From positions 1-55,833 of the IMG/VR virus record IMGVR_UViG_3300032401_002140: a stretch of DNA of 55,833 nt; one strand, written 5' to 3'. A model generated the notes under the pieces. The model saw only the letters and a program-made list of their open reading frames with translations, was not told the DNA's origin and did no database searches. The translations under genes were made by a program, and so were the position numbers. The stretch comes from a virus. Positions 23,448 to 54,534 of the stretch are shown here, piece by piece; position 1 is the stretch's first letter, and each line of letters begins with the position of its first letter.

Positions 23448-23621
23448 TTAAATATCCTTTTTAATAATTTTATCGCGACGTTTCATTTCTTGTTGAATCA
23501 GCCAAATGAGTTCATCATTCGCCGAGCGCAAATCTTTATCCGCCATATTTTTTAAATCATTCCAATCTTTATTAGGACAGCGGAAGTTGACGATGATTAA
23601 GTTTTTATTTTTTGCAACCAT
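23448..23621 (-). CDS. Leaderless ribbon-helix-helix (Arc-like) repressor candidate
   Basis: 57 aa. NLIIVNFRCPNKDWNDLKNM and the following helix fit the Arc/MetJ fold (strand, helix, turn, helix). ATG 23621 has no ribosome binding site, but a near-consensus promoter places the transcription start at or next to the ATG, as for lambda cI from PRM. It heads the leftward operon, next to integrase, opposite the late operon starting at 23822. Good candidate for the lysogeny or early switch repressor; that role is inference. Confidence 0.8.
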   Translation of the reverse strand: MVAKNKNLIIVNFRCPNKDWNDLKNMADKDLRSANDELIWLIQQEMKRRDKIIKKDI

Positions 23622-23628
23622 GCAATCT

Positions 23629-23656
23629 ATAATAGCATAATTTTGGCATTTGTCAA
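23629..23656 (-). promoter_or_regulatory. Promoter for the leaderless repressor/integrase operon
   Basis: Minus strand TTGACA (23651-23656), 16-bp spacer, TATTAT (23629-23634), then 7 nt to the ATG at 23621. Transcription is expected to start within ~1-2 nt of the ATG. Confidence 0.75.
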
Positions 23657-23690
23657 GTAAATAATTTTTAAAGCCATTTAGGTGATAGAA

Positions 23691-23793
23691 AATAGGTCTT
23701 ATGGGACATATGGGGGCGGTTATGAAAAGAACTGGATTCCGGCTTTCGCCGGAATGACGGAAGGAGAATCTAATTCAACGTAGAAATATAAAG
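23691..23793. repeat. Repeat cluster G-E-F in the divergent control region
   Basis: Type G (ATAGGTCTTATGGGACATAT) 23691-23720, type E hairpin (GGATTCCGGC/GCCGGAATGA) 23733-23760 and type F (AATTCAACGTAGAAATATAA) 23772-23793 lie between the repressor promoter and the first late gene. Confidence 0.85.
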
Positions 23794-23821
23794 TAAGCCC
23801 GATTACTATTTATTAAATAAT

Positions 23822-24196
23822 ATGGAATCCATCAGTAAAATGGAATTAGCCCGCCGGATAGGAACGGAGTTTTATTTATTGCAGAATTGTTTTCAGAATA
23901 AATTGATCCCAAATCATTTATTCCGATTAATTCCCAGGGAATTAAAATTATTGAAACCGGTGCGGGGATGTCCTTTGAAATATGAATATGATGTGGAAGG
24001 GATACGGGGTTGGTACCAGAATTATGTATTGACCCAGGGAAAGAGGAAGGAACGGGGACAAAATCAATTAATGCCATTGACTTTGCGGATATCTAAAATC
24101 GTTTATGACAAATTAAAAATTGAAGCGGGAGAAAACGGATACCGGTCAATGTCGCGATATGTCCGGCAGATATTATCCCAACGAGTGAAAGAATGA
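23822..24196 (+). CDS. HTH + ribbon-helix-helix regulator heading the late operon
   Basis: 124 aa. Residues 1-55 look like an excisionase/MerR-type HTH (MELARRIGTEFYLLQNCFQN); residues 80-124 (LMPLTLRISKIVYDKLKIEA ... YVRQILSQRV) fit an RHH domain. Could be a late-gene regulator, an Xis-like protein, or the DNA-recognition subunit of terminase. No clear ribosome binding site precedes ATG 23822. Overlaps the next gene by 4 nt. Confidence 0.7.
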   Translation: MESISKMELARRIGTEFYLLQNCFQNKLIPNHLFRLIPRELKLLKPVRGCPLKYEYDVEGIRGWYQNYVLTQGKRKERGQNQLMPLTLRISKIVYDKLKIEAGENGYRSMSRYVRQILSQRVKE

Positions 24197-24840
24197 GTGA
24201 AGAAAAGATCAATAAAGAATTATTTGATTTATACCGTTACGATATTTTAAAAGAGATCAAGGTATCGGAAGTGAGACTGATCCGGGACTGGTCCAAACAT
24301 ATCGGGCAATTACCCGGGATTCAGAATGCGTTACGCTGGGAAGAGAGAATAGACGATAAGCAATGGGATTTAAAAAAAGAATTGTATCAAAGTGTGATAT
24401 CCGATTTATTACAGTATGCCGTAGAGAATCCGTTACGTCCGGTATCCGCTTTATACATGATGGTGAATCCGGTATTGGCCAGAAAATTAATGGCCCGGAT
24501 CATGATGGATAACCCGACCGCCAAAGAATTGGATCCGTATAAACAATTATTACAAACATTACGCGGGATCATTAAAGATATCACGACCGTAGCGGGATTC
24601 AGCGAAGAAATTACCAAGAGTCTTTCTATTCAGGAACATATCATTACGGAACGGATCTCCCATCAGAATGAGGTTATCTTTCGGTTGGCCATCGATTATA
24701 CCTTGCAGGATTTAATTAAATTGAAAATGATGAACGATACATTAAAAGAAAAGTTTTATGGATTATTTGAAGAGAATCTAGAGAAAGCCGCGAAGGAAAA
24801 GTTCGATGTTGAAACCACCGCCACCCCGGAACCGGTTTGA
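24193..24840 (+). CDS. Putative terminase small subunit
   Basis: 215 aa, almost wholly alpha-helical and charged, with a coiled-coil-like C-terminus. It lies immediately upstream of and overlaps the large terminase gene (35 nt), the usual place for the DNA-recognition subunit. No sequence motif confirms this; the assignment is positional. Confidence 0.6.
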   Translation: MSEEKINKELFDLYRYDILKEIKVSEVRLIRDWSKHIGQLPGIQNALRWEERIDDKQWDLKKELYQSVISDLLQYAVENPLRPVSALYMMVNPVLARKLMARIMMDNPTAKELDPYKQLLQTLRGIIKDITTVAGFSEEITKSLSIQEHIITERISHQNEVIFRLAIDYTLQDLIKLKMMNDTLKEKFYGLFEENLEKAAKEKFDVETTATPEPV

Positions 24841-26686
24841 TTTCGCCAGTTATGTTTCCCGTGAAACCATGAGTCGAGCGGGATTGAATTCGGAGAATCT
24901 CCCGACCAAAACCCGATTGGGTGAGAAGTCCAATGACCCGGATTTTATCGAGATCATGCCGCATCCCTTGGATTATTTCGACAAGATATTGGGAATTAAT
25001 CCGTATGGATATTGTGAGGGGCATAAACGAAAAAAACTGCAAGAAAAGTTAATTGTAGATATTTGCGGGGAGAATCCGCGGGAATTCCGGCGAGGGAAAG
25101 GATTTCTACAAAAGCACGATAACCGGTTATTGATCGCCACCGGCGGCGGGAAAGATTTTATTATTCCCGGTTGTTTGCATTATTTACGGGATAAATTACT
25201 CTGTTGTCGAAACCCACAAAAAATCTTAAAAAAACATCCCTTATCCAAGATTGAATTTTATTTAGTATCTTTTACCGAACAGAATGCCAATAATAATATT
25301 TGGAGCACCTATTTGAATTTTTTACGAGGGTGTCCAAAATTAGTTAAATGGCTGGCGGAGCGGGGTTTTGATTATACAGATCGGACGGGAGATATCAAAA
25401 CCAATGAAGTGCGATATCCCAAAAATATATATACCCGTTTATTAAATGCCAAATATTATTCGGCGAAATCGAATGAGGGATATTGTTATGTATTCAATGA
25501 AGTAAGTTCAGTAGCTTTTGAAACTGCGAAAATGGGTTATGAGGAAATGCGCCGGAATAGCGATGGCCGGTTTGAAGAATTTAATATTAATATATTAATG
25601 AGCGCGCCGGATCCCAAGAAAGAAGAGAACACAGATTATATGTGTTTTGCGATTAAGGAAGGACAAAGGGGTAAAATCACAGATGAATTTGGGAATGTAG
25701 AAACGGAATTAGAGGATGAGATTTATACCTTCGTAGGACCCACTTGTTGTATGAACCCAACAAAATCTTATGCCTCGATTGCCATGAAATGTGAAGATCC
25801 CAATATCTCGGATGAAGAACGGTATAACAATAATTTAGCCTATTTATTAAAACGATTACCGTTACGCGGGGAGGAGAGTTTTTTTAAATTTACAGACCGG
25901 ATTTACGCGGGATTTGAAAAGGATTTGAATTTTATCTGCCGATGGGAACCGGCTTTGAGGGAACATCACGATACAAAGACCGGGAAAATAAAAAAATATA
26001 TCGGAGCGCGGTTATTGGATTTAAAATCTGAAAAGACGTTTAGTTATATCTGCGCCGCGGATACTTCAGAGATGCGCTGTGCGACCGTAGAGGTCATGGG
26101 TCATGTAGATGGGGACGGGAATATGGTGATTGATTTAATCGTTCCCCTGGTACCGGATGTGAAGAAACAGATTGCAGTAGATTACGCGGGACCGGAACGG
26201 GTGGAAGGAATGAAGTTACCGGATTCAGACCGGACGGGGTTATTGGATAATTTGGAACTATTGGCGGAGCGCAGAAATATACGGAAATATGTATTTGATA
26301 AATTCGATACCCCACCATTGGCGCAGAAATTGGAGCAAGTCACGAAAGTAACCGTGGAATTACATCATTTTCAAAATGCCCAGCAAGTACGATTTTATAA
26401 AACGTTACGGGCATTGATCGATGCCGGGAAGTTTCATTGTCCATATTTTGAGATCACGGATGAAAAGAATAACCGGTTAATCGATATCCATTCCGCGATG
26501 TTCACGGTGAAATCTATTATGACGGCGGGTGGACAATTAAAAATCATTACCCCGTTCAAGGATTATATCGATCCGATAGCTCATATATGCGGGGAATTTT
26601 TCGATCCCCCGGATGAGGATACGACTTATAACAATTATACGAAAGAAGAGAAACAGGGAATGATCAGACAAATGGGATGGGTTTAA
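24806..26686 (+). CDS. terL: Terminase large subunit
   Basis: 626 aa; AAGGAA upstream of ATG 24806. ATPase domain with Walker A-like ATGGGKDF (residues ~111-118) and Walker B-like YVFNEV (~228-233; Asn where Asp is usual), then a nuclease domain with an acidic motif AADTS (Asp419) and further D residues around 476-500. It packages viral DNA into proheads using ATP and cuts the concatemer. Followed by repeats and the portal gene. Highly diverged from familiar TerL groups. Confidence 0.85.
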   Translation: MLKPPPPRNRFDFASYVSRETMSRAGLNSENLPTKTRLGEKSNDPDFIEIMPHPLDYFDKILGINPYGYCEGHKRKKLQEKLIVDICGENPREFRRGKGFLQKHDNRLLIATGGGKDFIIPGCLHYLRDKLLCCRNPQKILKKHPLSKIEFYLVSFTEQNANNNIWSTYLNFLRGCPKLVKWLAERGFDYTDRTGDIKTNEVRYPKNIYTRLLNAKYYSAKSNEGYCYVFNEVSSVAFETAKMGYEEMRRNSDGRFEEFNINILMSAPDPKKEENTDYMCFAIKEGQRGKITDEFGNVETELEDEIYTFVGPTCCMNPTKSYASIAMKCEDPNISDEERYNNNLAYLLKRLPLRGEESFFKFTDRIYAGFEKDLNFICRWEPALREHHDTKTGKIKKYIGARLLDLKSEKTFSYICAADTSEMRCATVEVMGHVDGDGNMVIDLIVPLVPDVKKQIAVDYAGPERVEGMKLPDSDRTGLLDNLELLAERRNIRKYVFDKFDTPPLAQKLEQVTKVTVELHHFQNAQQVRFYKTLRALIDAGKFHCPYFEITDEKNNRLIDIHSAMFTVKSIMTAGGQLKIITPFKDYIDPIAHICGEFFDPPDEDTTYNNYTKEEKQGMIRQMGWV

Positions 26687-26691
26687 AAATT

Positions 26692-26795
26692 AGTTTCTAG
26701 TTTCTAGTTTAAAGTTTAAGGTTCAGAGCAATAGGTCTGATAGGACTTATAGGGCGGATAGGAAAGCAAAAAGTTAATTCAACGTAGATTTATTT
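26692..26795. repeat. Repeat cluster A-G-F
   Basis: Type A 26692-26721, type G (CAATAGGTCTGATAGGACTT) 26727-26762, type F (AATTCAACGTAGATTTATTT) 26776-26795, filling the terL-portal gap. Confidence 0.85.
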
Positions 26796-26825
26796 TAAGA
26801 AAGCGGGGTAAGGTCGAAGGCGATT

Positions 26826-28607: not shown

Positions 28608-28645
28608 GTTTCTAGTTTCTAGTTTAAAGTTTAAAGTTTAAAGTT
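28607..28645. repeat. Interspersed repeat A
   Basis: Five TTTCTAG/TTTAAAG-type units directly after the portal stop codon. Confidence 0.9.
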
Positions 28646-28670
28646 ACAGGGAAAAAAGGTTGAAGAGAAT

Positions 28671-29042
28671 ATGAAAAAATTGTTAATTATAATTTTGTTT
28701 ATATTACCGGTGTTGGGATTTGGATTGGCGAATGTAAGCAGTTTTAGTATAGAAACGGTGGATGATTATGTAAATGAGCATATCCAGCATACAGTATGTA
28801 CGACCCAGAATTATGATGTAAGCACAGTATGTTTTTATAATCAATCGACGGTGAATGTAGATATGCGATGTTTACAGGATACCACGGTGATAACATTTAT
28901 AAATCCGAATAGGAAAGAAGTAAAGATTAGGGAATGGGAATTATGGCCAGGGGAAATTATACCTACACAGAAGGAATATGAATTGATACGAGTGGAAGTG
29001 GATGGGAATAATATAATTATAATAAAGTATTTTAAAAGATAG
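28671..29042 (+). CDS. Exported small protein in the head module
   Basis: 123 aa; GTTGAAGAG upstream. Clear signal peptide (MKKLLIIILFILPVLGFGLA). The mature part has two cysteines near residues 44-52 and one near 63 and is beta-like. A secreted product between portal and prohead protease is unusual for a tailed phage. No family recognised. Confidence 0.75.
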   Translation: MKKLLIIILFILPVLGFGLANVSSFSIETVDDYVNEHIQHTVCTTQNYDVSTVCFYNQSTVNVDMRCLQDTTVITFINPNRKEVKIREWELWPGEIIPTQKEYELIRVEVDGNNIIIIKYFKR

Positions 29043-29055
29043 GAGTCTAGTGAAT

Positions 29056-29116
29056 GGAATAGGGATTCTTCTCTGCGCTCAGAATGACAATTTTTAATTC
29101 AACGTAGATTTATTTT
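29056..29116. repeat. Interspersed repeats D and F
   Basis: Type D (GAATAGGGATTCTTCTCTGC) 29056-29090 and type F 29096-29116. Confidence 0.85.
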
Positions 29117-29142
29117 ATAAAACTGTTTTACGATAACATACC

Positions 29143-31143: not shown

Positions 31144-31257
31144 AGGAACGGTTTGTACAAACGTATGTACAAAAACATAAATCTAAAAATTAGCTTGGGA
31201 AAGAAGAATGATCATTATGATGCATAGTATTCAAACCCAAAGCAGAAAGGAAAACAG

Positions 31258-31746: not shown

Positions 31747-31751
31747 AAGTG

Positions 31752-33091: not shown

Positions 33092-33095
33092 GAAA

Positions 33096-33580: not shown

Positions 33581-34057
33581 ATGAAAAAAAGATTTAGAAT
33601 CTTTCCAATTTTAATAGGTATAGCATGTATTGCTATGCTTGGTGGTTATGTCCAGGCGCAGGTTGTCGGGGGTAATTATCAGAATGTTCAACGAGTGGTG
33701 AATGTGAACGGAAATCCGATGTTGAAAGACACCGGTCAATTATTCTCGATATTACAAGTCAGTAAAGCGACAACCGTTGCCGTAAATACCACCTGTGCCA
33801 TTGATTGGATATGGGTAACCAATTTAGATTCCAGTAATGCTCATTATTTTGAGATTGCGGATGGGAAAACTGTAGCTGCCGTAACGAGCGGGAATAAGAG
33901 CGCACCTTATGTTGTGCCACCTGCCGGAACTCAACCTAATACGGTATTGATACCCTTGATGGAATCTCCCATTCCAATATCGAATAAACTGGTAATTTAC
34001 TGTGATAGCACCACATTATGCATTACCGGTAAATATCATAAAGTAGGCGGGAAATAA
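33581..34057 (+). CDS. Exported head-module protein, paralogue 1
   Basis: 158 aa; AAAGGAGAAGG upstream. Signal peptide (ILIGIACIAMLGGYVQAQ, cleavage after AQA/VQA). The mature part contains VVNVNGNPMLKDTGQLF, a VNTTCAIDW cysteine motif, EIADGKTVAAVTSGNKSAP and C-terminal YHKVGGK. Its close relative is encoded directly downstream. The strand-rich mature domain resembles small jelly-roll decoration or fibre domains, but export is unexpected. Confidence 0.8.
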   Translation: MKKRFRIFPILIGIACIAMLGGYVQAQVVGGNYQNVQRVVNVNGNPMLKDTGQLFSILQVSKATTVAVNTTCAIDWIWVTNLDSSNAHYFEIADGKTVAAVTSGNKSAPYVVPPAGTQPNTVLIPLMESPIPISNKLVIYCDSTTLCITGKYHKVGGK

Positions 34058-34578
34058 TGAAGGCGATTAGAATTTTGGAAATATTACTGATTATAATCCT
34101 GGCGGTTATATTCAGTAGTATCGTCCTAGCCCAGATCATCGGTGGGAATATTGAAAACCATCAAAATGTAGTGAACGTGAATGGCAGGCCGATGTTGAAA
34201 GATACCGGTCAGATATTTACGATAAACCCATTCGGGACCTTTACAACTATCGCTGTGAATACAACCTGCGCAATTGAATGGTTAATGATCACCAATACCG
34301 ATCCATCCAATTCCCATTATATCGAGATTGCGGATGGGAATACCGTGGCTGCCGTAACCAGCGGGAATAAGAGCGCACCCATTCAAATAGCACCGATGAA
34401 TTTCCTGGTCGGACATGGATTAACGTCCGCCTTTGATATCAGTTTGGTAGAACCGACAAAAATAACAATGCCCTTGACCGGATCTCCTCTGCCGATTGCC
34501 AAAAAATTAGTGATTTATATGGATAGTACCACGTTTTTGGCGGTATCCGGAAAAACCCATAAAGTAGGCGGTAAATAA
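34057..34578 (+). CDS. Exported head-module protein, paralogue 2
   Basis: 173 aa; ATG overlaps the previous stop (TAATG). Signal peptide (LLIIILAVIFSSIVLAQ). Tandem duplicate of the 33581 protein: shared VVNVNGxPMLKDTGQ, VNTTCAI, IADGxTVAAVTSGNKSAP and HKVGGK, with a ~20-residue insertion near residue 115. Duplication plus retention of both leaders suggests that export matters. Confidence 0.8.
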   Translation: MKAIRILEILLIIILAVIFSSIVLAQIIGGNIENHQNVVNVNGRPMLKDTGQIFTINPFGTFTTIAVNTTCAIEWLMITNTDPSNSHYIEIADGNTVAAVTSGNKSAPIQIAPMNFLVGHGLTSAFDISLVEPTKITMPLTGSPLPIAKKLVIYMDSTTFLAVSGKTHKVGGK

Positions 34579-42080: not shown

Positions 42081-44345
42081 ATGGCGATTGGAGATTTATT
42101 AATCCCGACGGAGTTACCGACTGAGAATTTAATTAATTGGGATGCGGCGCGCCAGCGGTGTAATTGTATCTTTCCAGCGGGTCATCTATTCGCCGGTCAA
42201 CGGGTTTGTAAGAGACGGGATAATTTGGGATTAGCGATCATCTCCTCGGTTGGCGGGATTAAATATTATCTTGAGGAATTACGCAGTTATTGGTCCAGTA
42301 TATTTCAGATCTGTTTTGGATATTTCCCGGTCGAATGGTTTCCAAATTATTGGACGCATGTGATTTATCCGGATCCGCCGGCTATACCCTATGATGCCTA
42401 TTCAATTCCCATTCATGGATTTAGTTCTTATGAACCGAATTTTATTAATTTGGAAGATGTAATTTATGTAACCTCCGGGGAGATCAATATTCTTGAGATA
42501 GAGAAACAGGACGAGGGGGATATCTTAACCACGAATGTAGATTTACGGAATTTGAAATTTGGGAAAAGTTATTATTCCATTGAATATCCGGATGCTCAAC
42601 CGCGGTGTATCTATAATATTGATTGGGTGGATACGGATGAAAATGAAGTACCGGTTTATCCTTTGGAATGCGGCAAGAATAATGGGCATATCTATACGGA
42701 ACATTGGACGGGATGCGGGAATTTCAAACGTAAAAAGATCAGTCCATGGGCGGAATATTATGGATTACGGTCCCAGGAACATACGGATGCAACCAAAGGG
42801 ATTCCCTGTGCTAATACCCAATGTCCGGATTATCAGAATCTGCAAGTAACAACTATTGGGGGAGAGAATCCCGGACCTCAATCCTATCGAATATCCGTGG
42901 ATATATCATGCAGTATCCAGGAAGGGGATGTGATTGTATTCACCCAGGGATATTTATCCAATCCGGTCTATGCCAATAATGTGGGGAAAAGTTTAATGTA
43001 TCATGGCGGGAGACAATTCCTGGTGGATAAGATATTACCGGATGATGGGGTTTATACTAAAATTAAATTAAAGAATGTCTGTCAGAATGATTTAATTAAT
43101 GCGCCGTTTGGGAGTTATGGCGGGGATTCGTTTGTAGTGGTGCGGTTAAAAGATTCACCGGTATGGAGTTGGGTAACAGATAATCAAAGACGAATGGTGT
43201 ATGGGAATTATCTGGAAACTGATGTAATCAGTATACCGAATCGGGGAACGATAGAAATTTGGGAGTTCAATGGGGAAGGTAATTTGCGGGAAGGGGATAT
43301 TGCCAGAGTCGGGAAGGAATATATCCAGATTATGTCGGTGGATTCGGAGGGAGATATTATGAGTTGTCATGTCCGGAGGGGGTATTTTGATGAGAATTTA
43401 TTGATGTATAATCAGAATGATAATGAAGGCGGGGATGAGAATATTCATCCGATTCCCTGCGTTGAACCGATCACGGAAGATAATTCTATCATGCATCGTC
43501 ATCCGAAAGGATCCGGGGTGGTGGTGGATATGCGGAAATGTTGGTTTGATTATACGGATCATTGCAATGGAATAATTTGTATCCGGCGAAGACCGAGTAT
43601 AGCAGATAAATACCAAGGCGGGAGTACAGACGTCTGTACAAATACAACCTGTCATACCTATTGGTCCCGACCGGCGATCTATCGTTCGACCATATTCCAT
43701 GAGTTAGTCCATCGGGTGACAACCCGGGAAGGACATCAGCAAACGGCTATTATCTATAATGATAAAGGAAATTCAACAGCGACTATATTGGATTATTTCT
43801 TAACGGAAGTTACGGGACCGTCGGCGATGGCCTGTTTGGGGAAATGGGGATTGATTGAGACTATGGGAAGTAGCCAATATTTACCCTATTATTTTAATAC
43901 CGGGATATTAAATTGCCGGAATTATGGCTGGAGACGGACCTATGGCGCAGATATTGTAGAAGGGGAATTAGAGGTAGAGTTTGATGAATCTGGGGATCCG
44001 ATCGATTATGGCCATCCGCATAATGGGGCGATATGCCAGTTTAGGGAGGATGCTTTGATGTATATCGATAATACCTGGCAATTGATTAATGGCGGGGATT
44101 GGGTGGTTGGTGGGGATATTGCGGTATTTGCCGGGATGGATGGGAATGTAAAGCCGGGAATTATTTATCAGGCCTTGGGTGCGATGTCTTATAGGAATAG
44201 GCATTTTTATGATGAGAATGACAAACCAACGGGGAGTGGGATGATTGTGGGTATGAGACGGTTATCTTTATTATCATGGTGTATAAAGCCATTAAATGGG
44301 TTTAGTGGGAATAGTTTGTGGAATGGGGTAGAGAGATGGGTGTAA
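42081..44345 (+). CDS. Large Cys-rich virion protein with HExxH peptidase motif
   Basis: 754 aa. Many cysteine pairs (CNCIFPAGHLFAGQRVC, ECGKNNGH, GCGNFKRKK, CANTQCPDY), suggesting disulfides or zinc sites. Residues 540-544 are HELVH in TIFHELVHRVTTREGHQ, a zincin-type metallopeptidase signature, followed by YFLTEVTGPSAM with a Glu suited as third ligand. Likely a virion-associated peptidase for host-surface digestion or tail maturation. In-frame repeat QGGSTDVCT near residue 514. Peptidase function is inferred from the motif. Confidence 0.75.
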   Translation: MAIGDLLIPTELPTENLINWDAARQRCNCIFPAGHLFAGQRVCKRRDNLGLAIISSVGGIKYYLEELRSYWSSIFQICFGYFPVEWFPNYWTHVIYPDPPAIPYDAYSIPIHGFSSYEPNFINLEDVIYVTSGEINILEIEKQDEGDILTTNVDLRNLKFGKSYYSIEYPDAQPRCIYNIDWVDTDENEVPVYPLECGKNNGHIYTEHWTGCGNFKRKKISPWAEYYGLRSQEHTDATKGIPCANTQCPDYQNLQVTTIGGENPGPQSYRISVDISCSIQEGDVIVFTQGYLSNPVYANNVGKSLMYHGGRQFLVDKILPDDGVYTKIKLKNVCQNDLINAPFGSYGGDSFVVVRLKDSPVWSWVTDNQRRMVYGNYLETDVISIPNRGTIEIWEFNGEGNLREGDIARVGKEYIQIMSVDSEGDIMSCHVRRGYFDENLLMYNQNDNEGGDENIHPIPCVEPITEDNSIMHRHPKGSGVVVDMRKCWFDYTDHCNGIICIRRRPSIADKYQGGSTDVCTNTTCHTYWSRPAIYRSTIFHELVHRVTTREGHQQTAIIYNDKGNSTATILDYFLTEVTGPSAMACLGKWGLIETMGSSQYLPYYFNTGILNCRNYGWRRTYGADIVEGELEVEFDESGDPIDYGHPHNGAICQFREDALMYIDNTWQLINGGDWVVGGDIAVFAGMDGNVKPGIIYQALGAMSYRNRHFYDENDKPTGSGMIVGMRRLSLLSWCIKPLNGFSGNSLWNGVERWV
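43624..43639. repeat. Palindromic repeat GTACAGACGTCTGTAC within coding sequence
   Basis: Perfect 16-bp palindrome. With its flank GGCGGGAGTACAGACGTCTG it matches 1811-1831 in the 1577 gene, both read as QGGSTDV(C/W)T. The same 16-mer occurs at 17978-17993 in the ParB-like gene, and a degenerate copy lies at 31155-31170. Confidence 0.8.
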
Positions 44346-44350
44346 TAATA

Positions 44351-47400: not shown

Positions 47401-47464
47401 GGATACTAAGATGGTGGAGGATCAGGTGCAGGAGGTTGTTCATTATCCGTTTATACAAAAATAA
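44453..47464 (+). CDS. Giant tail protein, unknown (1003 aa)
   Basis: 1003 aa; AAAGGAAGATAG before ATG. Acidic and rich in Tyr, Asp and Gly, with scattered cysteines (DDACGI, GEACGF, GCIVGQ) and Gly-rich loops (GIGGGIGGCEIGKAGLGG near residues 740-757). A region around 785-800 carries several His/Cys residues (SSCKYRHPLSQRDGCGYEE), perhaps a metal site. Follows the HExxH protein; likely a baseplate or tail-tip structural component. No domain recognised. Confidence 0.7.
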   Translation: MGNSSKGGDGHETQRPILADDACGIPESMLPPAGEACGFIEYYKHIPYEAEFIRFPRRQDYQYTQKVQAKIIKPHKDPALKSYDFKKRSDGSTVSKRLLLSEIDHGMARSGEDSRWDEDYEPLDWSNWLAQNESLPETFLAWTEKYKKITGAVNQLYSTGILCDGDLRKFVFINGGYDKNDDRDSDEIEEDDNFQILNVTDTKLCHVNHFEANIMMGGNICGRPDTYNVSDEVDFELGEIDSKAVELDCIWFQPDGYKDIRNCFSIKRAIPCHAGAPTISQIPIIVKKTNHADVPVSPDNWNLLNLNLDFIEICDQYGEVLLPSEAVIYLDAGDENTVHVTEEMDFGIYSIGRIKPGSLRVLDVGYPGYTDEGEGGIQYPNVNGYQGPVELVEGEGADYSIPSYGCIVGQIDLNIGLKFKWKSVHESTRQDQYMITGYEVSNGYLLLNAAATEIIRITRNGEEDESWEFDFDEPKKIPLDNLVLDEVIEVEYKWVRPICVRMECEIIDRSNENMFATWRDELIAVANECKIVKYTKFTPELVGYGAIRFNAGLILYTPYPPVEPSYFLNAGNGKYPAFNGTELTRPVYITSSGVGGIGHKGQVPGKFQNLYVVDEYYGEVIPFNSIGGLMVLCQYGKDIIKKVTARVQVNNMSFHKQTCTQGDESHVNSGAMAFRDTLYQPGEMEGWDAEFTDWTEQSIAEAQPKLACKIVYTQKQEIGAQNLKLKLTNCMNYKEGIGGGIGGCEIGKAGLGGVYSSWMYHMSSSCKYRHPLSQRDGCGYEETGGGGVMFDDNGADSWESAEGYFRSHTNDFGLHALEDNFPFGRTAHTAVLDPFLFYPYDEVGDHPEYTALGWNLNQDHGIRCGISLAGDSLGNTRVISKWHGLFDGEGKAIAEEPITDPDQIIDFDITEAIVWMIEHINEHPNFGLYFCSHFAVDGTQPTDEWMCYSQRDEAESFNYAWSYEAWQDLMQVTLLELAVEFKKDTKMVEDQVQEVVHYPFIQK

Positions 47465-47598
47465 GTTTCTAGTTTCTAGTTTAAAGTTTCTAGGTGGCGT
47501 CGGGAAATACACAAAGATCGTTTCATTCCCGACGCAGAGAGTTTAAAGTTTCTAGTTGGCGTCGGGAAATACACAAAGGACGTTTCATTCCCGACGCA
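47464..47598. repeat. Repeat cluster A-C-A-C
   Basis: Type A 47464-47493, C hairpin 47496-47535, short A 47541-47556 and a second C hairpin 47557-47598 that is nearly identical to the first. The paired A-C units look like a recent tandem duplication. Two strong stems after a 3-kb gene may serve as terminators in both directions. Confidence 0.9.
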
Positions 47599-47604
47599 GA
47601 GAAT

Positions 47605-48042
47605 TTAGAAGAATTGAATAAAAAACATAAACAGTAAACCTAGAAACATAATAAAAAGAATTAAAGCCAGTGGATTGAGGCGATGAAATATGAGTAATGA
47701 ATTATCTTTATTAAAAAGAGGGAAGGATAGATCTATAATGAAAATTTTCCAGAGACAGAAAAATGATATATATAAGCAGAAAAGAAATGGGAGGTAATCT
47801 AAAAGGATTAATGGAAAAGAATAATCAGAATTATATTCCGGTTTATTTTTGGGCCATATTGGCGCAGCTCCATTTTTTATATCTTTAGCAATTTGTTCCG
47901 GATCAAACGGTTCATTAAAGGATTTATGTTCTAAAAACAATTGATGTTGATGCAATATATAATATTGACGATAAGTAACAATTAAAAAGAGAAATCCAAA
48001 AATGAAGTATAAAATAAATCTAAAATCTTTAGACCCTTTCAT
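47605..48042 (-). CDS. Leaderless membrane protein sharing a motif with the tape-measure N-terminus
   Basis: 145 aa from ATG 48042 (a TTG at 48060 lies upstream of the -10 box). Three transmembrane segments (about residues 7-25, 78-100 and 125-145). Between TM1 and TM2 is DIKNGAAPIWP (47851-47883), matching DIKRGASPIWP at residues 25-35 of the adjacent tape-measure-like protein. AT-rich, antisense to the late operon, no ribosome binding site, promoter 6 nt before the ATG. Fits a lysogenic-conversion or superinfection-exclusion gene; function inferred. Confidence 0.75.
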   Translation of the reverse strand: MKGSKDFRFILYFIFGFLFLIVTYRQYYILHQHQLFLEHKSFNEPFDPEQIAKDIKNGAAPIWPKNKPEYNSDYSFPLILLDYLPFLFCLYISFFCLWKIFIIDLSFPLFNKDNSLLIFHRLNPLALILFIMFLGLLFMFFIQFF

Positions 48043-48048
48043 GGAAAT

Positions 48049-48077
48049 AGTATATGGCAATTAAAAGAATTATTCAA
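48049..48077 (-). promoter_or_regulatory. Promoter of the leaderless membrane gene
   Basis: Minus strand TTGAAT (48072-48077), 17-bp spacer, TATACT (48049-48054), then 6 nt to ATG 48042. The -35 box lies inside a type F repeat (48071-48091). Confidence 0.6.
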
Positions 48078-48263: not shown

Positions 48264-48294
48264 GGTGATTGGGGAAAGAGGAAAGGAAAATGAT

Positions 48295-51200
48295 ATGCCG
48301 TTTGAAGGAAGACAGAATCCATACGCGGGAATGAGTGAAGATGAGATAGCGTTTATTATCTCGAATGATATCAAGCGCGGGGCAAGCCCGATTTGGCCAA
48401 CGACCGGTCAAATGATTAGCAGTCCGCAGAATGCATTATCCGGGGCGTATTATCAATTTACCGGGAAGGCAGCGCCAGCAGGGCAAGGCGCATTATCCTT
48501 AACCCTGGATGCACCGTTTACCTGGATGCGGAAGAATGTCGGGAAGATGGTGGAAGATGTCACGGATATAATCCAAGGGGTGGAAGGGAAAAAGAGTTGG
48601 GAACAGGTATTAAAAGATATGACGCAGTTTGGGTCGTATGCGGAGAATTTCAATTGGTTTGGTCCGAAACATCCAGTATATAATTTCGCTGCGGAAATGT
48701 TAACAACGCCATTCCCATCCCTATCCAAGATCCCGGGAATGGCAAAGATCGTGAGTTCATTCGGATCGGTGGGTCGGGGTGTGATAGATCAGGGAATGAC
48801 GGGTTTGGGGAGGTTATCACCCAAAAGCGCAGAGTATACGAGATATTTATTTTCCCCGACGGGAGAAGGGATTGGCGGAAAAGCCAAAGATATCATTGAT
48901 CAAATCCATATGGGACCAGTATTTTATGGGGGAGGAAGCGCAAAAGCCTGGTTGCCCAGTCATTTTGATCCGGATATAACCAATGCCATACGAGCGGATG
49001 CTCCCCAGTTAATGCAGACATTTTTTAATAGTAGACCGATCAATATGCTGGATAAAATGGCACGCGGGATCCAGCCATTAATATTGATGAAGAATTTGGG
49101 AAGTTTTATTACGGGAAATATTTTATCGGATGCAATCAAAGGAATTATATCATCCCGGATAGAAGGCGCAAGTTATAAGGATATAGTTACGGATATAGTA
49201 AAAGCCATGAGAATGAGCACGTTAGAAGCCCAGGAGAAATGGGGGGCGCAACTCATGCATGTGAATGTCATGAGCGGAGAAAGAGGAAGCGCATATCGGA
49301 TGATGAATTTGAGCGGGGGATATGGGAAAGAGATGGGATTCAAGTTGGGGAAATATTCTTTTCCTATTGAGAGTTCGATTATGAATCCAATGATCACGGA
49401 TGTTCAATCACATATCCCGATTAATTTGAATATGGATTATTTAAAGACCATTAATCCGCTGCGGGCGGGAAGTATAGAATTGGAATATCAGCGTTGGGCG
49501 CGATTATTTTCCCAACAGATGACGGGTGGTATGGTCCGGGGACAACCGATACATTATGCGGATGTATTGAGCGGGAAGGTTTCACGTGGAATCAATTATG
49601 ATGCCCAGAAAATTCAACAGGTGGTGAATGAATTAGGATTGGTCGGTCGAGCAACCGAGCAAGAAGTATACCAGGCGATCTTGTCAAAGAATTATGCGGT
49701 ACCGATGCGGATGCCATTTTATCCAAGGAATGCGGGATCCGCGCAGGATTATTTCATGCAAATGATGACCGGGTTGAATGTCGAGAAATTGCAGGGGTTA
49801 TCGAATATGAAAGGTCCGGGGATAGTGAATCGATCATTATCCTTTTTATCGACGGATACTTTTTACCGGAAGTATGCCGGGCTTATGGCGGAGAGAATGG
49901 GACTGGACCCGACACAAACGATCAAGAATATATATTTTAATTATGGTGTTGGCGGGCGGTTAAATCTACAGAATGTACCTATAGTCGGATCCGCGTTTCC
50001 ATTTATCACTCCAACGATTAAAGAATTAGGTTGGGTAGCCAAATACCCGGTGTATCGCGGAATGGAATATGGATGGAATTATTCAAGAGCAATGATGGCA
50101 TGGAAGAATCGACCCGGGACAGAGGATTTAACCGAACATCAGAAATTTCTAACACCGCATCCCTTGAATCCATTATTGCGAGGATTGGGATCGGATTATC
50201 AATTTATGGCGAATCCATGGGGGCGGTTATGGATGGATCCAATTACGCAATTGACAATGCTGGGAGGCGGTGCAGAAGATATTAAAATAACCGATACGGT
50301 TAGTTTTATGGGGATTCATAATCTTAATCCGATCTATGAGACAGCTCTAACAGCATTGCAAGGCGGGGGTGTGAAACCATTACCTCTGCCATTTGTTCCG
50401 GAGAGTATATCGTTATGGAAATATTATCAAAACAGAAATGCCGTTGCCGGGGAAGGGAATAAATATTCAGAGATCTATCGCCAACAATTAGCATCCCGCC
50501 ATTTAAAAGCGGCGATCCAGGGATTTTTACCGATGGTATCGATGGGCGGGACTTTGCAATTGCCGATGAATATGAATGTAGAGATGCCGAGAAGTATGGG
50601 ATCAGTACAAAGAATGAATTATCATATTAACCGGCGAACACTGAATCAGATTCTAAATGACAGAGTGGGTGGCGGGCCTTGGTCAGATTTTGAAAATAAT
50701 ATTGGCAAAGGATTAGCCATAGGAGGAATGATTAAAGGGGGATTTTCACTTCGTGATTATTTGAAAGCAAGCGATATTGAAAAGATTGAGATGATGGGAT
50801 TAAAAGTACCCAATTCTGGATCTTCCCCGATGCGGAATTATTTATCACGGAGCGGACCGGAAATTACGTTGAATGCAGAAGGACCATTAACCGAGAAATT
50901 AGGAACCGTTATGGAACGGTCTCCCGCTCAGGTGAATGTGAAGATTACGCCAGGGATAGAGGAACGGTTGGCAACTTATAAACAATATCCTAATGCGGGA
51001 ATACGGTATCGAGCGCCCAAATATACCCCTATAGAGAATATAATAAAAGAATCAACTATACCTGGGACAGGAATGATATCGCCAGAGGAATCTTATATAG
51101 GCGGGGAATATCGATTAAATTCACAGACTTTGGAAGCGATGATGGAAAGTGGTGAAGGTGGACCAAGCCAATATTTGCGACAGATGAGTCGGAAAATGAA

Positions 51201-52410
51201 AATAGATCGTTTTGGTAGATTGGGAGGATATGTTAAATGGGGAACGATGGGGATTAACTTGATTGTTTCGGGATTGCAAGCTAAAGAGGAATTAGAATCG
51301 GGTGAAACGCCGGGATTTGTAGGAGCGAAAACAGCGGCTGGGTTGGGGGGATTATTATTAGTAGCTGAAACAATATCAGGACCACCTGGATGGACTACTA
51401 TGTTAATGCAAGGGATATTAGGGACTGGAGCATATTTTGCCGGGCGAGGAGCGATGGGTGAATTATATCCCTGGCAGAAACGGGAAGAACAAGGAATTTT
51501 ACAACCGGAAGTGAGATGGAATATGCTACAAAGATATAAACAAGATTATTCCCCGCGTGGGTCTAAATTCATGTCTCATATAGCCACGTCTGAAGAATTA
51601 TCATTGTATCAAAATCAGGATTTAAATACCTATCAAGTCACGCAATTACGTAATTTACAAGCCTATGGAAATGCACCGAAAGGGATACGGGGATTATTGA
51701 TCAAGCAATTGGGGAAAGAAGAACAAGCATTTGAAGATCAATTGAAAATAGATATGATAGAAAAAGGATATACGGAAAGAAATCTTGCCACGATGAAAGT
51801 GCGATCAGGATTTTATGGGGGAATGAGCCGCCGACCGGGATTGACGAAAGCGGAATTGGGATGGATATATCAGAAACAAGGTAATGCTCTAATGCAAGAA
51901 GCCAAAACTTTAGGATATAAAGGTAATGAATATCATCCTTTTACATTAAAAGAGATTATAGCGCAATATAGGATAGGTGAAAATATAAAAACCAAAGGGA
52001 TTGCGTTTGAGATAGCAGCGGAGAAAGCGAATTTACCGCGACAGGGACGGATGGAATCGTATGGCGGGGAACCGTTTACATTTGACCGGATGAGCGAATA
52101 TATGCCGACGCCGAATAGATTGGATTTAAGCGGGGATGTATCGATGGAGACTTTGATGCAATTGACGTATGAAATGCCCTGGGTGGAACAATCTGTAGAT
52201 ATCAATAATCGATATGTAGGGAGTTGGGAAGGGAAAATTAGCCGTAGAGCAGCGAAGGAAATAAGGGATATTGTAGAGGATAAATATATAGCTATACAAA
52301 AAGAAAATAAAAAACAAGAAATAATGGATGATGCGATAAGATCAGCTATGTCGTTTGAAAATGAAATGTTGGGATTATATAGTACAGATGTTACAGGACA
52401 TCGCATTTAA
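48295..52410 (+). CDS. Tape-measure-like giant virion protein (1371 aa)
   Basis: ATG 48295 with GAGGAAAGGAAA upstream (a GTG at 48265 is less likely). Longest gene in the window. The N-terminus contains NDIKRGASPIWPTTG; hydrophobic stretches include residues ~990-1065 (TAAGLGGLLLVAETI, MLMQGILGTGAYFAG). Long helical segments and NVPIVGSAFPFITPTIKEL recall tape-measure or DNA-ejection proteins. If it is a tape measure, ~0.15 nm per residue predicts a tail near 200 nm. Flanked by antisense membrane genes. Confidence 0.7.
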   Translation: MPFEGRQNPYAGMSEDEIAFIISNDIKRGASPIWPTTGQMISSPQNALSGAYYQFTGKAAPAGQGALSLTLDAPFTWMRKNVGKMVEDVTDIIQGVEGKKSWEQVLKDMTQFGSYAENFNWFGPKHPVYNFAAEMLTTPFPSLSKIPGMAKIVSSFGSVGRGVIDQGMTGLGRLSPKSAEYTRYLFSPTGEGIGGKAKDIIDQIHMGPVFYGGGSAKAWLPSHFDPDITNAIRADAPQLMQTFFNSRPINMLDKMARGIQPLILMKNLGSFITGNILSDAIKGIISSRIEGASYKDIVTDIVKAMRMSTLEAQEKWGAQLMHVNVMSGERGSAYRMMNLSGGYGKEMGFKLGKYSFPIESSIMNPMITDVQSHIPINLNMDYLKTINPLRAGSIELEYQRWARLFSQQMTGGMVRGQPIHYADVLSGKVSRGINYDAQKIQQVVNELGLVGRATEQEVYQAILSKNYAVPMRMPFYPRNAGSAQDYFMQMMTGLNVEKLQGLSNMKGPGIVNRSLSFLSTDTFYRKYAGLMAERMGLDPTQTIKNIYFNYGVGGRLNLQNVPIVGSAFPFITPTIKELGWVAKYPVYRGMEYGWNYSRAMMAWKNRPGTEDLTEHQKFLTPHPLNPLLRGLGSDYQFMANPWGRLWMDPITQLTMLGGGAEDIKITDTVSFMGIHNLNPIYETALTALQGGGVKPLPLPFVPESISLWKYYQNRNAVAGEGNKYSEIYRQQLASRHLKAAIQGFLPMVSMGGTLQLPMNMNVEMPRSMGSVQRMNYHINRRTLNQILNDRVGGGPWSDFENNIGKGLAIGGMIKGGFSLRDYLKASDIEKIEMMGLKVPNSGSSPMRNYLSRSGPEITLNAEGPLTEKLGTVMERSPAQVNVKITPGIEERLATYKQYPNAGIRYRAPKYTPIENIIKESTIPGTGMISPEESYIGGEYRLNSQTLEAMMESGEGGPSQYLRQMSRKMKIDRFGRLGGYVKWGTMGINLIVSGLQAKEELESGETPGFVGAKTAAGLGGLLLVAETISGPPGWTTMLMQGILGTGAYFAGRGAMGELYPWQKREEQGILQPEVRWNMLQRYKQDYSPRGSKFMSHIATSEELSLYQNQDLNTYQVTQLRNLQAYGNAPKGIRGLLIKQLGKEEQAFEDQLKIDMIEKGYTERNLATMKVRSGFYGGMSRRPGLTKAELGWIYQKQGNALMQEAKTLGYKGNEYHPFTLKEIIAQYRIGENIKTKGIAFEIAAEKANLPRQGRMESYGGEPFTFDRMSEYMPTPNRLDLSGDVSMETLMQLTYEMPWVEQSVDINNRYVGSWEGKISRRAAKEIRDIVEDKYIAIQKENKKQEIMDDAIRSAMSFENEMLGLYSTDVTGHRI

Positions 52411-52413
52411 AAA

Positions 52414-52827
52414 TTATGTTTTATATGATGGACTAAAAAGTTTAGTTAATACAACAGCACCAAGAAGTTTCGTATGTAAATCCAATTGATTGTCGAAGAA
52501 TAAAGATATCAATGAAATGATAATAAAATAAAAGGTAAATCTAGTACTAAAACGAAAAAATATATATGATGAATCAATTAAATATGAGAGAAAATTCATT
52601 TTTATAGAATATATATTTTGTATAAGACTTATAACAAAAATAATTGAATAATTATAAAGTAGAAAAAGTAAAGATGGAATACCGAAACATACTAATAAGA
52701 AGATATATAATGGTTCAGAAAAAAGGTCTGGAGAAGTATAAAATATATAAATGAAGAAGAATAAAATGCACCATGATAAAAAGTATATAATTCTTTTTAT
52801 TGAGGACTTATATACAATGTTAGCCAT
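52414..52827 (-). CDS. Small membrane protein, paralogue of 52836 product
   Basis: 137 aa from ATG 52827 (an in-frame TTG at 52839 overlaps the previous stop). Three or four transmembrane helices; FFFIYIFYTSPDLFSEPLYI matches FFMYIFFVSPDLFAEPFYY in the neighbour. No ribosome binding site visible, so probably coupled to the upstream gene. AT-rich moron-type gene, convergent with the tape-measure gene end (3-nt gap). Confidence 0.65.
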   Translation of the reverse strand: MANIVYKSSIKRIIYFLSWCILFFFIYIFYTSPDLFSEPLYIFLLVCFGIPSLLFLLYNYSIIFVISLIQNIYSIKMNFLSYLIDSSYIFFRFSTRFTFYFIIISLISLFFDNQLDLHTKLLGAVVLTKLFSPSYKT

Positions 52828-52835
52828 GCTGATAA

Positions 52836-53384
52836 TCAAAGATGACCATATATAATGGCAAATAGAAAAATTGAAATTGCCATTTTAATACTGAATGCAC
52901 AAAAAGAGGCGAGTAAAAAACAATAAACATAATACCAAGGCCAGTGATTATCATGATATTCCTTACAATAAGCAATAGAGATACGAAAAAATAAAAGGAA
53001 AAGAAAAATTATAAAGATTGGAGTACATATCCAAAACAATAGAATTAAAGTAAATATTAAACGAAAATATTCCCAAGATGTAGTGGGTTTTTTGAACATT
53101 GGAAAATCATAATTCAAAGACTTTTGATTATCCACTTTTGGATTCATGGGAATGATGGGGGTAATGGTTGGAGAATTAGGAGAAGACTGATTTATCTGTT
53201 TAATTTTTAAAAAAATGAATTTGATATTCATAAAGAGAAAATATATAAAGACCGGAAGACCGATCAAGAAAAGCAAATTGTAATAAAATGGTTCAGCAAA
53301 AAGGTCTGGAGAAACGAAAAATATATACATGAAAAACAAGAGAATCAAGAGAGATAAAAAATAGAGATATTTTTGAAGGGACAT
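52836..53384 (-). CDS. Leaderless membrane protein (moron candidate)
   Basis: 182 aa from ATG 53384; the longer TTG-initiated frame starts inside the -35 box. Four predicted transmembrane segments (residues ~6-24, 31-50, 100-125, 150-175) with a Pro/Asn-rich loop (SSPNSPTITPIIPMNP). Shares YIFxxSPDLFxEPxY with the downstream paralogue. Promoter 7 nt before the ATG, no ribosome binding site. Possible phage-exclusion or envelope-modifying protein. Confidence 0.7.
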   Translation of the reverse strand: MSLQKYLYFLSLLILLFFMYIFFVSPDLFAEPFYYNLLFLIGLPVFIYFLFMNIKFIFLKIKQINQSSPNSPTITPIIPMNPKVDNQKSLNYDFPMFKKPTTSWEYFRLIFTLILLFWICTPIFIIFLFLLFFRISIAYCKEYHDNHWPWYYVYCFLLASFCAFSIKMAISIFLFAIIYGHL

Positions 53385-53391
53385 GGACAGC

Positions 53392-53420
53392 ATGATAGTA
53401 CAATTATTTAAAAGAGTCAA
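53392..53420 (-). promoter_or_regulatory. Promoter of the leaderless membrane-protein pair
   Basis: Minus strand TTGACT (53415-53420), 17-bp spacer, TATCAT (53392-53397), then 7 nt to ATG 53384. Confidence 0.6.
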
Positions 53421-53438
53421 TGATTATATGGGATATAT

Positions 53439-54341
53439 TTAAGCAACTTGGCTCCAATGGGTAGAAGGATTGAGTTTCTCCAGGGCGTTATAGAGTTTTT
53501 GGGTATCGGTATGGGTATAAATCTGCGTAGTAGCGATACAAGAATGACCCAGGAGGGCTTGAATATCGAGGATGCTGATGTTCTTACCATGCCAGAGGGT
53601 CGCGCAGGTGTGGCGCAATTTGTGAGGGCTGATGTTTTTGGGAAGACCGATAGCGGCGCATTGTTTTTTAATGCGGTCCCAGGCGGTCCAAGGGGTAAGG
53701 CGATGACCGGAATCGTTGAGGAGTAATGCCGGGGTGTCGGAGGTTGGCCGGATGTTGAGATATTCATAGATTACTTCGAGCAAATCCGGGAGGAGCGGGA
53801 GGAGACGTTGTTTGTTCCCTTTACCGGTGATGAGAATGGTGTGCGCAGAGAAGTCCAGGTCAGAGAGATTGATCCCGACCAATTCAGAGACCCGGAGGCC
53901 GAGATGAGCGAAGAGATTGATGAGCAGATAGTCACAGCAACCCATAGCCGTGGTGCGGTCGGGGTTATCCAAGAGGCGTTGAAGATTGGGTTCGGAAAGA
54001 TAGACCGGAAGATATTGGGGAATGGCGGGAGATTCGAGGTCGAGCGTAGGGTCAATGGGAATATGGTTTTGTTTTTTAAGGAAAGCGAAGAACATCTTGA
54101 GAGCCGATATCTTCCGCCGGCGGTCGTGTGGTCCGGAACTGAAGAGAGACGTCAGGAAGTCACGGAGATTTTGGGCGGTAATCTTTTTAGTCCGGGGATT
54201 AATGCCAGCGGATTCGAGAAAAGTAAACAACCGATGGAGATCATGGCTGTATGCCGCAATGGTTTTGGGTGAACGGTTGAGTTCAGTTTTTAAATATCCC
54301 AGGAAATCAGGGAGGTATTCGGATAATGATTGGTCTTTCAT
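53439..54341 (-). CDS. Tyrosine recombinase (XerC/D-like), copy 2
   Basis: 300 aa; AAAGGAGC upstream of ATG. Same domain layout as copy 1 (9120-10070), with all catalytic residues (GLRVSE, TGKGNKQR, HKLRHTCA, LLGHS, IYTH). The catalytic domain differs from copy 1 at one residue (GHSC for GHSS) over about 165, whereas the N-terminal core-binding domain and last ten residues diverge. Preceded by the zinc-ribbon gene in one operon. The pair may act as heteromers or at two distinct sites. Confidence 0.93.
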   Translation of the reverse strand: MKDQSLSEYLPDFLGYLKTELNRSPKTIAAYSHDLHRLFTFLESAGINPRTKKITAQNLRDFLTSLFSSGPHDRRRKISALKMFFAFLKKQNHIPIDPTLDLESPAIPQYLPVYLSEPNLQRLLDNPDRTTAMGCCDYLLINLFAHLGLRVSELVGINLSDLDFSAHTILITGKGNKQRLLPLLPDLLEVIYEYLNIRPTSDTPALLLNDSGHRLTPWTAWDRIKKQCAAIGLPKNISPHKLRHTCATLWHGKNISILDIQALLGHSCIATTQIYTHTDTQKLYNALEKLNPSTHWSQVA

Positions 54342-54363
54342 GTGATGCTCCTTTATTAAAAGA

Positions 54364-54498
54364 TTATTTGATTTTGGTTCTTCTTTCTTTATTCCAATAA
54401 GGACTTTTACATTTCGGACATATAATTATTTCAGGACCTCGTGGAGTCCAAGAATGATTACAGCGTTTGCAATGAAGTGTTATGGTTTTTATTTTCAT
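54364..54498 (-). CDS. Leaderless 44-aa zinc-ribbon protein
   Basis: 44 aa from ATG 54498; CKRC and CPKC (Cys10, 13, 27, 30) with CPKCKSPYWNK, typical of small bacterial and archaeal zinc ribbons that bind DNA. A promoter lies 7 nt before the ATG and there is no ribosome binding site. It precedes recombinase copy 2 by 22 nt and may regulate it. A longer frame to 54549 crosses the promoter and is rejected. Confidence 0.75.
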   Translation of the reverse strand: MKIKTITLHCKRCNHSWTPRGPEIIICPKCKSPYWNKERRTKIK

Positions 54499-54505
54499 AT
54501 TTAGA

Positions 54506-54534
54506 AGTATAACCCATAGGTAAGAAGATGTCAA
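54506..54534 (-). promoter_or_regulatory. Promoter of the leaderless zinc-ribbon/recombinase operon
   Basis: Minus strand consensus TTGACA (54529-54534), 17-bp spacer, TATACT (54506-54511), 7 nt to ATG 54498. A type F repeat lies just upstream (54543-54563). Confidence 0.75.

What the first reader, a model, noticed from the sequence alone, without database searches (positions are those of the whole stretch)
23448..54534. A set of four leaderless genes with matched promoter-to-ATG geometry
Four leftward genes lack a ribosome binding site but have a sigma70-type promoter ending 6-7 nt before the ATG: RHH repressor candidate (TTGACA-16-TATTAT-7-ATG, 23621), membrane protein (TTGAAT-17-TATACT-6-ATG, 48042), membrane protein (TTGACT-17-TATCAT-7-ATG, 53384) and zinc ribbon (TTGACA-17-TATACT-7-ATG, 54498). 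Most other genes have AGGAG-type sites. All four encode regulator or moron-like products. This looks like a prophage-state regulon using leaderless mRNA, like lambda cI from PRM but spread over several loci.
Basis: partly seen in the sequence, partly recalled or inferred. Interest (0 to 1): 0.75.

Follow-up and report, generated by a model that had tools for sequence, protein, structure and literature searches.

The report
Four phage genes starting at promoters
An uncultured temperate-type phage has four scattered genes whose promoters sit so close to the start codon that the messenger RNA should begin at the start codon itself, without a ribosome-binding leader; the geometry is real and far beyond chance, but nothing shows that the four are controlled together.

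Summary
All four promoter-to-ATG layouts are present letter for letter. When all 67 gene starts are scored the same way, these four are the top four. They also exceed all 2,183 other ATGs in the window, and local shuffles almost never reproduce them (4 observed, mean 0.025, maximum 2 in 3,000 rounds). The same scoring recovers the known leaderless lambda cI geometry. It finds nothing comparable in about 190 genes of PY54, HK97, N15 and part of P22, and 2 cases among 693 genes from unrelated genomes. Three of the four genes have no usable alternative start. Leaderless expression from host sigma-70-type promoters is therefore the best reading (about 0.8), although no 5' end has been mapped.

The 'prophage-state regulon' is not shown. 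The four share no operator. Three equally strong leftward promoters of the same phage drive ordinary leadered genes, including one of two XerC-like twins. Three of the four genes lie in counter-oriented AT-rich islands in the late region (moron-like); one is an Arc-like regulator ahead of the integrase. Host and relatives could not be found, so a host-wide leaderless habit remains a serious ordinary rival.

Verdict: a real, unusual clustering of a known kind of gene start.

The parts
23619..23656 (-). Leaderless promoter of the RHH gene: -35 TTGACA 23656-23651, 16-nt spacer, -10 TATTAT 23634-23629 (extended-10-like TGC before it), 7 nt, ATG 23621-23619
   Evidence: 11.5 bits; the only in-frame start codon
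23448..23621 (-). 57-aa Arc-like ribbon-helix-helix protein, first gene of the leftward cluster, next to the integrase
   Evidence: PHROG 6506 Arc-like E=3.8e-5; Pfam Arc 17.9 bits, below cut-off 20.4; coding signal 0.44 versus -0.95 shuffled
22240..23445 (-). Tyrosine integrase directly downstream of the RHH gene (2 nt between the listed reading frames)
   Evidence: PHROG 1 integrase 1.5e-45; Pfam Phage_integrase 6e-16
48040..48077 (-). Leaderless promoter of membrane protein MP1: -35 TTGAAT 48077-48072 (the end of a repeated 20-mer), 17 nt, -10 TATACT 48054-48049, 6 nt, ATG 48042
   Evidence: 11.5 bits
47605..48042 (-). MP1, 145-aa membrane protein, counter-oriented between late genes; GC 27%
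   Evidence: no Pfam or PHROG hit; hydropathy and blastp; GC
53382..53420 (-). Leaderless promoter of membrane protein MP2: -35 TTGACT 53420-53415, 17 nt, -10 TATCAT 53397-53392, 7 nt, ATG 53384
   Evidence: 12.0 bits
52836..53384 (-). MP2, 182-aa membrane protein; GC 28%
   Evidence: no family hit
52414..52827 (-). MP3, tandem paralogue of MP2, directly adjacent, no strong promoter of this kind of its own
   Evidence: 34% identity to MP2, E=1.5e-15
54496..54534 (-). Leaderless promoter of the zinc-ribbon gene: -35 TTGACA 54534-54529, 17 nt, -10 TATACT 54511-54506, 7 nt, ATG 54498; the strongest sigma-70 site in the window
   Evidence: 13.9 bits
54364..54498 (-). 44-aa CxxC...CxxC zinc-ribbon protein, first gene upstream of XerC-like copy b
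   Evidence: sub-threshold zinc-ribbon hits in Pfam, phrog_4875 E=0.0025
53439..54341 (-). XerC-like recombinase copy b, SD-led (AAAGGAG), downstream of the zinc-ribbon gene
   Evidence: PHROG 1 integrase 1.9e-45; SD
10068..10138 (-). Leadered contrast: TTGACA 10138-10133, 17 nt, TAGACT 10115-10110, 39-nt leader gap with AAAGGAG, ATG 10070 of XerC-like copy a (9120-10070)
   Evidence: 12.6 bits
11100..11150 (-). Leadered contrast: TTGACA 11150-11145, 16 nt, TACAAT 11128-11123, 20 nt with AAAGGAG, ATG 11102 of 10485-11102
   Evidence: 12.1 bits
11303..11390 (-). Leadered contrast: TTGACA 11390-11385, 17 nt, TAAAAT 11367-11362, 56 nt, ATG 11305 of a 52-aa ORF
   Evidence: 13.3 bits

Best explanation
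The four genes are transcribed by host RNA polymerase from four separate, near-consensus sigma-70-type promoters placed so that the transcription start falls on, or within one or two bases of, the A of the start codon. Their mRNAs are therefore leaderless and would be read by the SD-independent route (5'-terminal AUG). The strength of the sites and the layout (a regulator ahead of the integrase, and counter-oriented AT-rich islands inside the late gene block) suggest constitutive expression that does not depend on the phage's lytic programme: maintenance or moron-type genes. Shown: the sequence geometry, its excess over chance, the absence of SD and of usable alternative starts, and the contrast with leadered genes of the same phage. 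Inferred: the real start sites, the translation mode, expression in the lysogen, and the gene functions. Not shown, and thought unlikely as stated: a common regulator.
For: Exact layout at all four sites. Top four of 67 starts and above all 2,183 control ATGs. Shuffle mean 0.025, maximum 2 in 3,000. Scanning every promoter-to-ATG distance up to 44 nt, sites of at least 10 bits occur only at d=6-7 (these four) and at 20 and 39 (leadered, SD-led genes). The base before the ATG is a pyrimidine in all four, which favours initiation at A. RHH, MP1 and ZnR have no downstream in-frame start in the stretch examined; the upstream ATG of MP2 overlaps the -10 box. Coding signal above shuffles for RHH, MP1, MP2 and ZnR. 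Positive control: lambda and HK97 cI recovered at d=6. Comparison: no site of 9 bits or more in PY54, HK97, N15 and part of P22, where P22 mnt, arc and sieA and the HK97 morons score best in leadered positions; 2 of 693 genes in unrelated loci, 0 of 425 at matching GC. MP1 and MP2 promoters are no more alike than shuffles, so the layout did not come by their duplication.
Against: No 5' end is mapped. The host is unknown, so its promoter consensus is assumed from E. coli. No relatives were found for a conservation test. AT-rich genes are richer in promoter-like DNA; local shuffles control for this but not for every form of it. MP1 and MP2 have no homologues outside the window, so their reality rests on open frames, coding signal and the MP2/MP3 paralogy.
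Confidence: 0.78

Rival explanations
1. Host habit: the unknown host belongs to a clade in which many transcription units are leaderless, so a phage that uses host promoters naturally has some. The mRNAs are leaderless, but the set has no special meaning for the phage. (This competes with a phage-specific meaning, not with leaderlessness itself.)
For: Leaderless (TANNNT-led) genes are widespread in bacteria: 4-7% in several phyla, about 20% in Actinobacteria and about 40% in Deinococcus-Thermus (PMC3160421; PMC12340547). Four of 67 genes is about 6%.
Against: Other equally strong promoters of the same phage are leadered and SD-led, and about 40 of 67 starts carry an SD match, so SD-led initiation is the rule here. 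The host could not be identified.
Confidence: 0.4
2. A prophage-state regulon: the four promoters are controlled together, for example by the RHH protein.
For: All four are leftward, against the late genes; one is a DNA-binding protein next to the integrase; an imperfect ATGCnAT...ATnGCAT palindrome overlaps the RHH -10 box and ATG. Three of the four have the 20-mer TTTATATTTCTACRTTGAAT upstream.
Against: The palindrome is not found at the other three promoters and near-matches occur at chance level. No inverted repeat above background at any of the four. The 20-mer lies at different distances, is absent upstream of MP2, and its 12-nt core is a general intergenic repeat with three more exact copies beside rightward late genes. 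Leadered promoters of equal strength lie on the same strand.
Confidence: 0.12
3. The proteins are made from longer transcripts that start at other promoters further upstream; the near-ATG promoter is incidental or makes an untranslated RNA.
For: Weaker promoter-like sites exist upstream in the AT-rich repeats.
Against: No SD in front of any of the four, the strongest sites in the area are these, and the spacing is nearly the same in all four.
Confidence: 0.12
4. Chance matches picked out by eye in AT-rich DNA.
For: The genes are AT-rich, 27-32% GC in the four.
Against: Per-gene shuffles, control ATGs and 693 foreign genes.
Confidence: 0.02

Closest known systems
Lambda cI transcribed from PRM (and HK97 cI)
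   Same: ATG at the transcription start, -10 box ending 6 nt before it, no SD; recovered by the same scan
   Different: PRM is weak (5.9 bits) and needs CI; here the sites are near consensus (11.5-13.9 bits), the repressor candidate is RHH rather than HTH, and three further genes share the layout
Yersinia phage PY54 cI and cro, both leaderless by RACE (PMC4488713)
   Same: More than one leaderless gene in one temperate phage; cro recovered at d=6
   Different: Only the immunity switch pair is reported; here membrane and zinc-ribbon genes scattered over the genome
PaaR2 regulator of cryptic prophage CP-933P (PMC8630535)
   Same: Leaderless prophage regulator, confirmed by RACE and N-terminal sequencing
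   Different: One gene, in a lambda-like switch region with divergent operators
-10-motif-led genes of Deinococcus-Thermus and other bacteria (PMC12340547, PMC3160421)
   Same: -10 box directly before the ORF
   Different: In D. radiodurans the -10 motif alone can serve as promoter; here all four have a good -35 at 16-17 nt
Phage morons (HK97 gp15, gp22, gp23; P22 sieA)
   Same: Small genes, sometimes counter-oriented, inserted among late genes
   Different: Those examples score best as leadered and show SD-like AGGAG sequences before the start

Membership tests
Leaderless (-10-led) bacterial genes | -10-like hexamer about 5-9 nt before the start codon | tested here: met
   d = 6, 7, 7, 7
Leaderless (-10-led) bacterial genes | No Shine-Dalgarno sequence before the start | tested here: met
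   0- to 3-nt matches only
Leaderless (-10-led) bacterial genes | AUG start with no usable alternative start | tested here: met
   for MP2 downstream TTG/ATG codons exist but without SD
Leaderless (-10-led) bacterial genes | Mapped 5' end at the start codon | not testable with these tools
   no transcriptome for this uncultured phage
Moron genes (MP1, MP2/MP3, ZnR) | Own sigma-70-type promoter, inserted between genes of another unit | tested here: met
Moron genes (MP1, MP2/MP3, ZnR) | Composition different from neighbours | tested here: met
   GC 22-31% versus 41% genome. XerC copy b in the same island is 50%
Moron genes (MP1, MP2/MP3, ZnR) | Own terminator | tested here: inconclusive
   hairpin repeats follow MP1 but without a T-run; terminator-like sites not above shuffles
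Moron genes (MP1, MP2/MP3, ZnR) | Absent from related phages at the same place | not testable with these tools
   no relatives found
Arc/Mnt ribbon-helix-helix repressors (23448-23621) | Significant match to the family profile | tested here: inconclusive
   PHROG E=3.8e-5, Pfam below cut-off; single-sequence monomer model shows only a helix
Coordinated regulon | Shared operator or regulator site at the promoters | tested here: not met

The most novel reading that the evidence does not exclude
A temperate phage keeps two translation modes apart: genes needed outside the lytic cycle (regulator, membrane exclusion-type proteins, zinc ribbon) are leaderless, while replication, recombination and virion genes are SD-led. 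The lysogenic set would then be translated by the leaderless route, for example in starved or stressed cells, without sharing a regulator.
Probability: 0.18. Interest if true: 0.65.

Novelty: new variant of a known kind. Interest (0 to 1): 0.42.

Why it matters
Leaderless phage genes are documented as single cases or as a repressor pair. Four in one genome, two of them orphan membrane proteins in moron-like islands, with leadered promoters of equal strength as built-in contrasts, would make the phage a natural test of whether leaderless expression is selected for genes used outside the lytic cycle. It also gives a simple filter (a strong promoter ending 6-7 nt before an ATG) for finding such genes and correcting start sites in viral genomes.

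Tried and rejected
Relatives by terminase, XerC, DnaB, capsid-like protein, MP2 and portal in IMG/VR: none. Known phages: only about 21-27% identity terminases of Rhodococcus and Thermus phages, no capsid match, distant integrases, no RHH match, only insignificant zinc-ribbon matches. Host by intergenic repeats: the 20-mer is absent from other viral contigs; a 16-mer in genome contigs gave scattered, chance-level hits, so that scan was wasted by too short a pattern; the AGTTTCTAGTTT repeat gave one near-match in 285 Omnitrophota genomes, was absent from 30 further genomes of other groups and from other viral contigs, not enough to name a host. The 20-mer repeat as a regulon signal: rejected, its core is a general intergenic repeat. 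RHH operator at the other promoters: not found. Origin of MP1 and MP2 promoters by duplication: not supported. AlphaFold of the RHH monomer: uninformative.

Full report
What the window is. The record is a virus contig of 55,833 nt with a 127-nt direct repeat at its ends, so the unit is about 55,706 nt and probably circular or circularly permuted. The late genes run rightward from 23822 round to about 8800. They include a divergent terminase at 24806 (weak PHROG and phage matches), very large proteins at 42081, 44453 and 48295, and, judged from sequence alone, lysis-type genes near 7388 and 8297. A leftward cluster runs from 23621 to 8911 with an RHH gene, an integrase and DnaB. Two short leftward islands interrupt the late block: 47605-48042 and 52414-54498.

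The observation. All four promoter-to-ATG layouts are present exactly as written. I scored every gene start with a sigma-70 weight matrix that allows spacers of 15-19 nt and a -10 box ending 4-9 nt before the start. The four genes are the four best of 67 (11.5, 11.5, 12.0, 13.9 bits; fifth 6.6), and all 2,183 other ATGs of both strands score lower. Shuffling each upstream region with its dinucleotides kept gives 0.025 such genes on average and never more than two in 3,000 rounds. With an ORF-based version of the same test, 693 genes from over a hundred unrelated bacterial and archaeal loci give two such sites, and none among 425 genes of similar GC, against four of 72 ORFs in the window. One caution: the window run used ORFs of at least 40 aa and the foreign loci at least 80 aa.

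Is it leaderless? When the -10-to-ATG distance is scanned from 1 to 44 nt, sites of at least 10 bits occur at d=6 (one), d=7 (three), d=20 and d=39 (one each). The last two are ordinary leadered genes with AAAGGAG before the ATG: 11102 and the XerC-like copy a at 10070. So the same phage offers internal contrasts of equal promoter strength. At d=6-7 with a pyrimidine before the ATG, the A of the ATG is the expected start; this uses general knowledge of sigma-70 initiation. RHH has no other in-frame start in the stretch examined, ZnR and MP1 only upstream TTG codons that lie in or before the promoter, and the ATG nine bases upstream of the MP2 start overlaps the -10 box. The method recovers lambda and HK97 cI (TAGATA-17-TAGATT-6-ATG) and PY54 cro; leaderless mRNAs are documented for lambda cI and paaR2 (PMC8630535) and for PY54 cI and cro (PMC4488713).

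The genes. The RHH protein is Arc-like by PHROGs (E=3.8e-5) but below the Pfam cut-off. It lies directly ahead of the integrase. The zinc ribbon has only sub-threshold matches and precedes a XerC-like recombinase. MP1 and MP2 have several hydrophobic segments and no known relatives; MP2 and MP3 are tandem paralogues (34%, E=1.5e-15) and MP1 is weakly similar to MP2 (E=0.004). The four leaderless genes are 27-32% GC in a 41% genome. RHH, MP1, MP2 and ZnR all show codon signal above shuffles.

Regulon or not? I looked for a common control site. The four -60 to +20 regions share no inverted repeat above background. An imperfect palindrome over the RHH -10 box and ATG is unique to that gene, and near-matches elsewhere occur at chance level. 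RHH and ZnR share TTTACTTGACA, but so does the leadered 10070 promoter. The 20-mer TTTATATTTCTACRTTGAAT precedes three of the four (0.05 expected), yet at different distances; its core TCTACRTTGAAT is an intergenic repeat that also sits beside three rightward late genes. In MP1 the repeat happens to supply the -35 box. The promoters are not whole copies of each other: ZnR shares the upstream repeat with MP1 and an A/T-rich tract plus -35 box with RHH, and the parts from spacer to ATG differ. I therefore keep 'four leaderless genes' and set aside 'one regulon'.

Comparison with known phages. In PY54, HK97, N15 and part of P22 (187 scored genes) nothing reaches 9 bits in the leaderless position. 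P22 mnt, arc and sieA and the HK97 gp15 moron score best as leadered. Four strong leaderless promoters in one phage are thus unusual in this small comparison. Leaderless genes as such are widespread, with shares of 4-7% in several phyla and 20-40% in a few (PMC3160421). If the host is of the latter kind, the finding is ordinary. I could not identify the host or any close relative.

Mechanism proposed. Host RNA polymerase starts at the AUG; ribosomes bind the 5'-terminal AUG; the proteins are made irrespective of the lytic programme. Steps shown: promoter geometry, lack of SD, lack of usable alternative starts, contrast with leadered genes. Steps inferred: start sites, translation mode, expression in the lysogen, functions. 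Confidence in leaderless expression 0.78; in a shared regulator about 0.12.

Noticed in passing
window 1156-54846, intergenic, e.g. 12215, 28600, 47457-47600, 54600-54830: The phage is peppered with short interspersed repeats of the kind seen in bacterial chromosomes: 14 copies of AGTTTCTAGTTTCTAGTTTAAAGTTT, 8 of GGATTCTTCGCTGCGCTCAGAATGACA, 6 of GGATTCCGGCTTTCGCCGGAATGAC, 7 of CCCTCACCCT...CTCCCAGAGGGAGAGGG, 6 of GCGTCGGGAAAT...CATTCCCGACGC. Unusual density for a phage.
   Followed up: partly
window 16631-17137, 18753-19907, 2396-4090: Some of these repeats lie inside genes and are translated (SCHSERSEESQFN in two proteins, SPYPSPRERG in a third), suggesting recent spread.
   Followed up: no
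window 9120-10070 and 53439-54341: Twin XerC-like recombinases, 84% identical, both leftward and near 50% GC. One has its own leadered promoter; the other lies behind the leaderless zinc-ribbon gene.
   Followed up: partly
window 47605-48042 (MP1) and 48295-52410: MP1 carries IAKDIKNGAAPIWP and the adjacent divergent large virion-type protein carries ISNDIKRGASPIWP near its N-terminus (71% over 14 aa). Possibly a mimic of a virion or injection protein, as an exclusion protein would need; weak statistics.
   Followed up: partly
window 1-127 and 55707-55833: The 127-nt terminal repeat equals a common assembler k-mer length, so it may mark a circular assembly rather than true terminal redundancy.
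   Followed up: no
window, - strand: All seven of the highest-scoring sigma-70-type sites are leftward (one of them just inside an ORF whose listed start is too early); the late rightward genes have none of comparable strength ahead of them, so late transcription probably uses other signals.
   Followed up: partly
L126:32512 (PY54 cI) and L128:34705 (N15 cB): The best leaderless-type promoter (TAGCCA-17-TATGAT-7-ATG) lies before an ATG 12 nt downstream of the annotated starts of both repressors, so the true start may be four codons further in.
   Followed up: no
window 33581-34057 and 34057-34578: Tandem paralogous secreted-type proteins, 53% identical.
   Followed up: no
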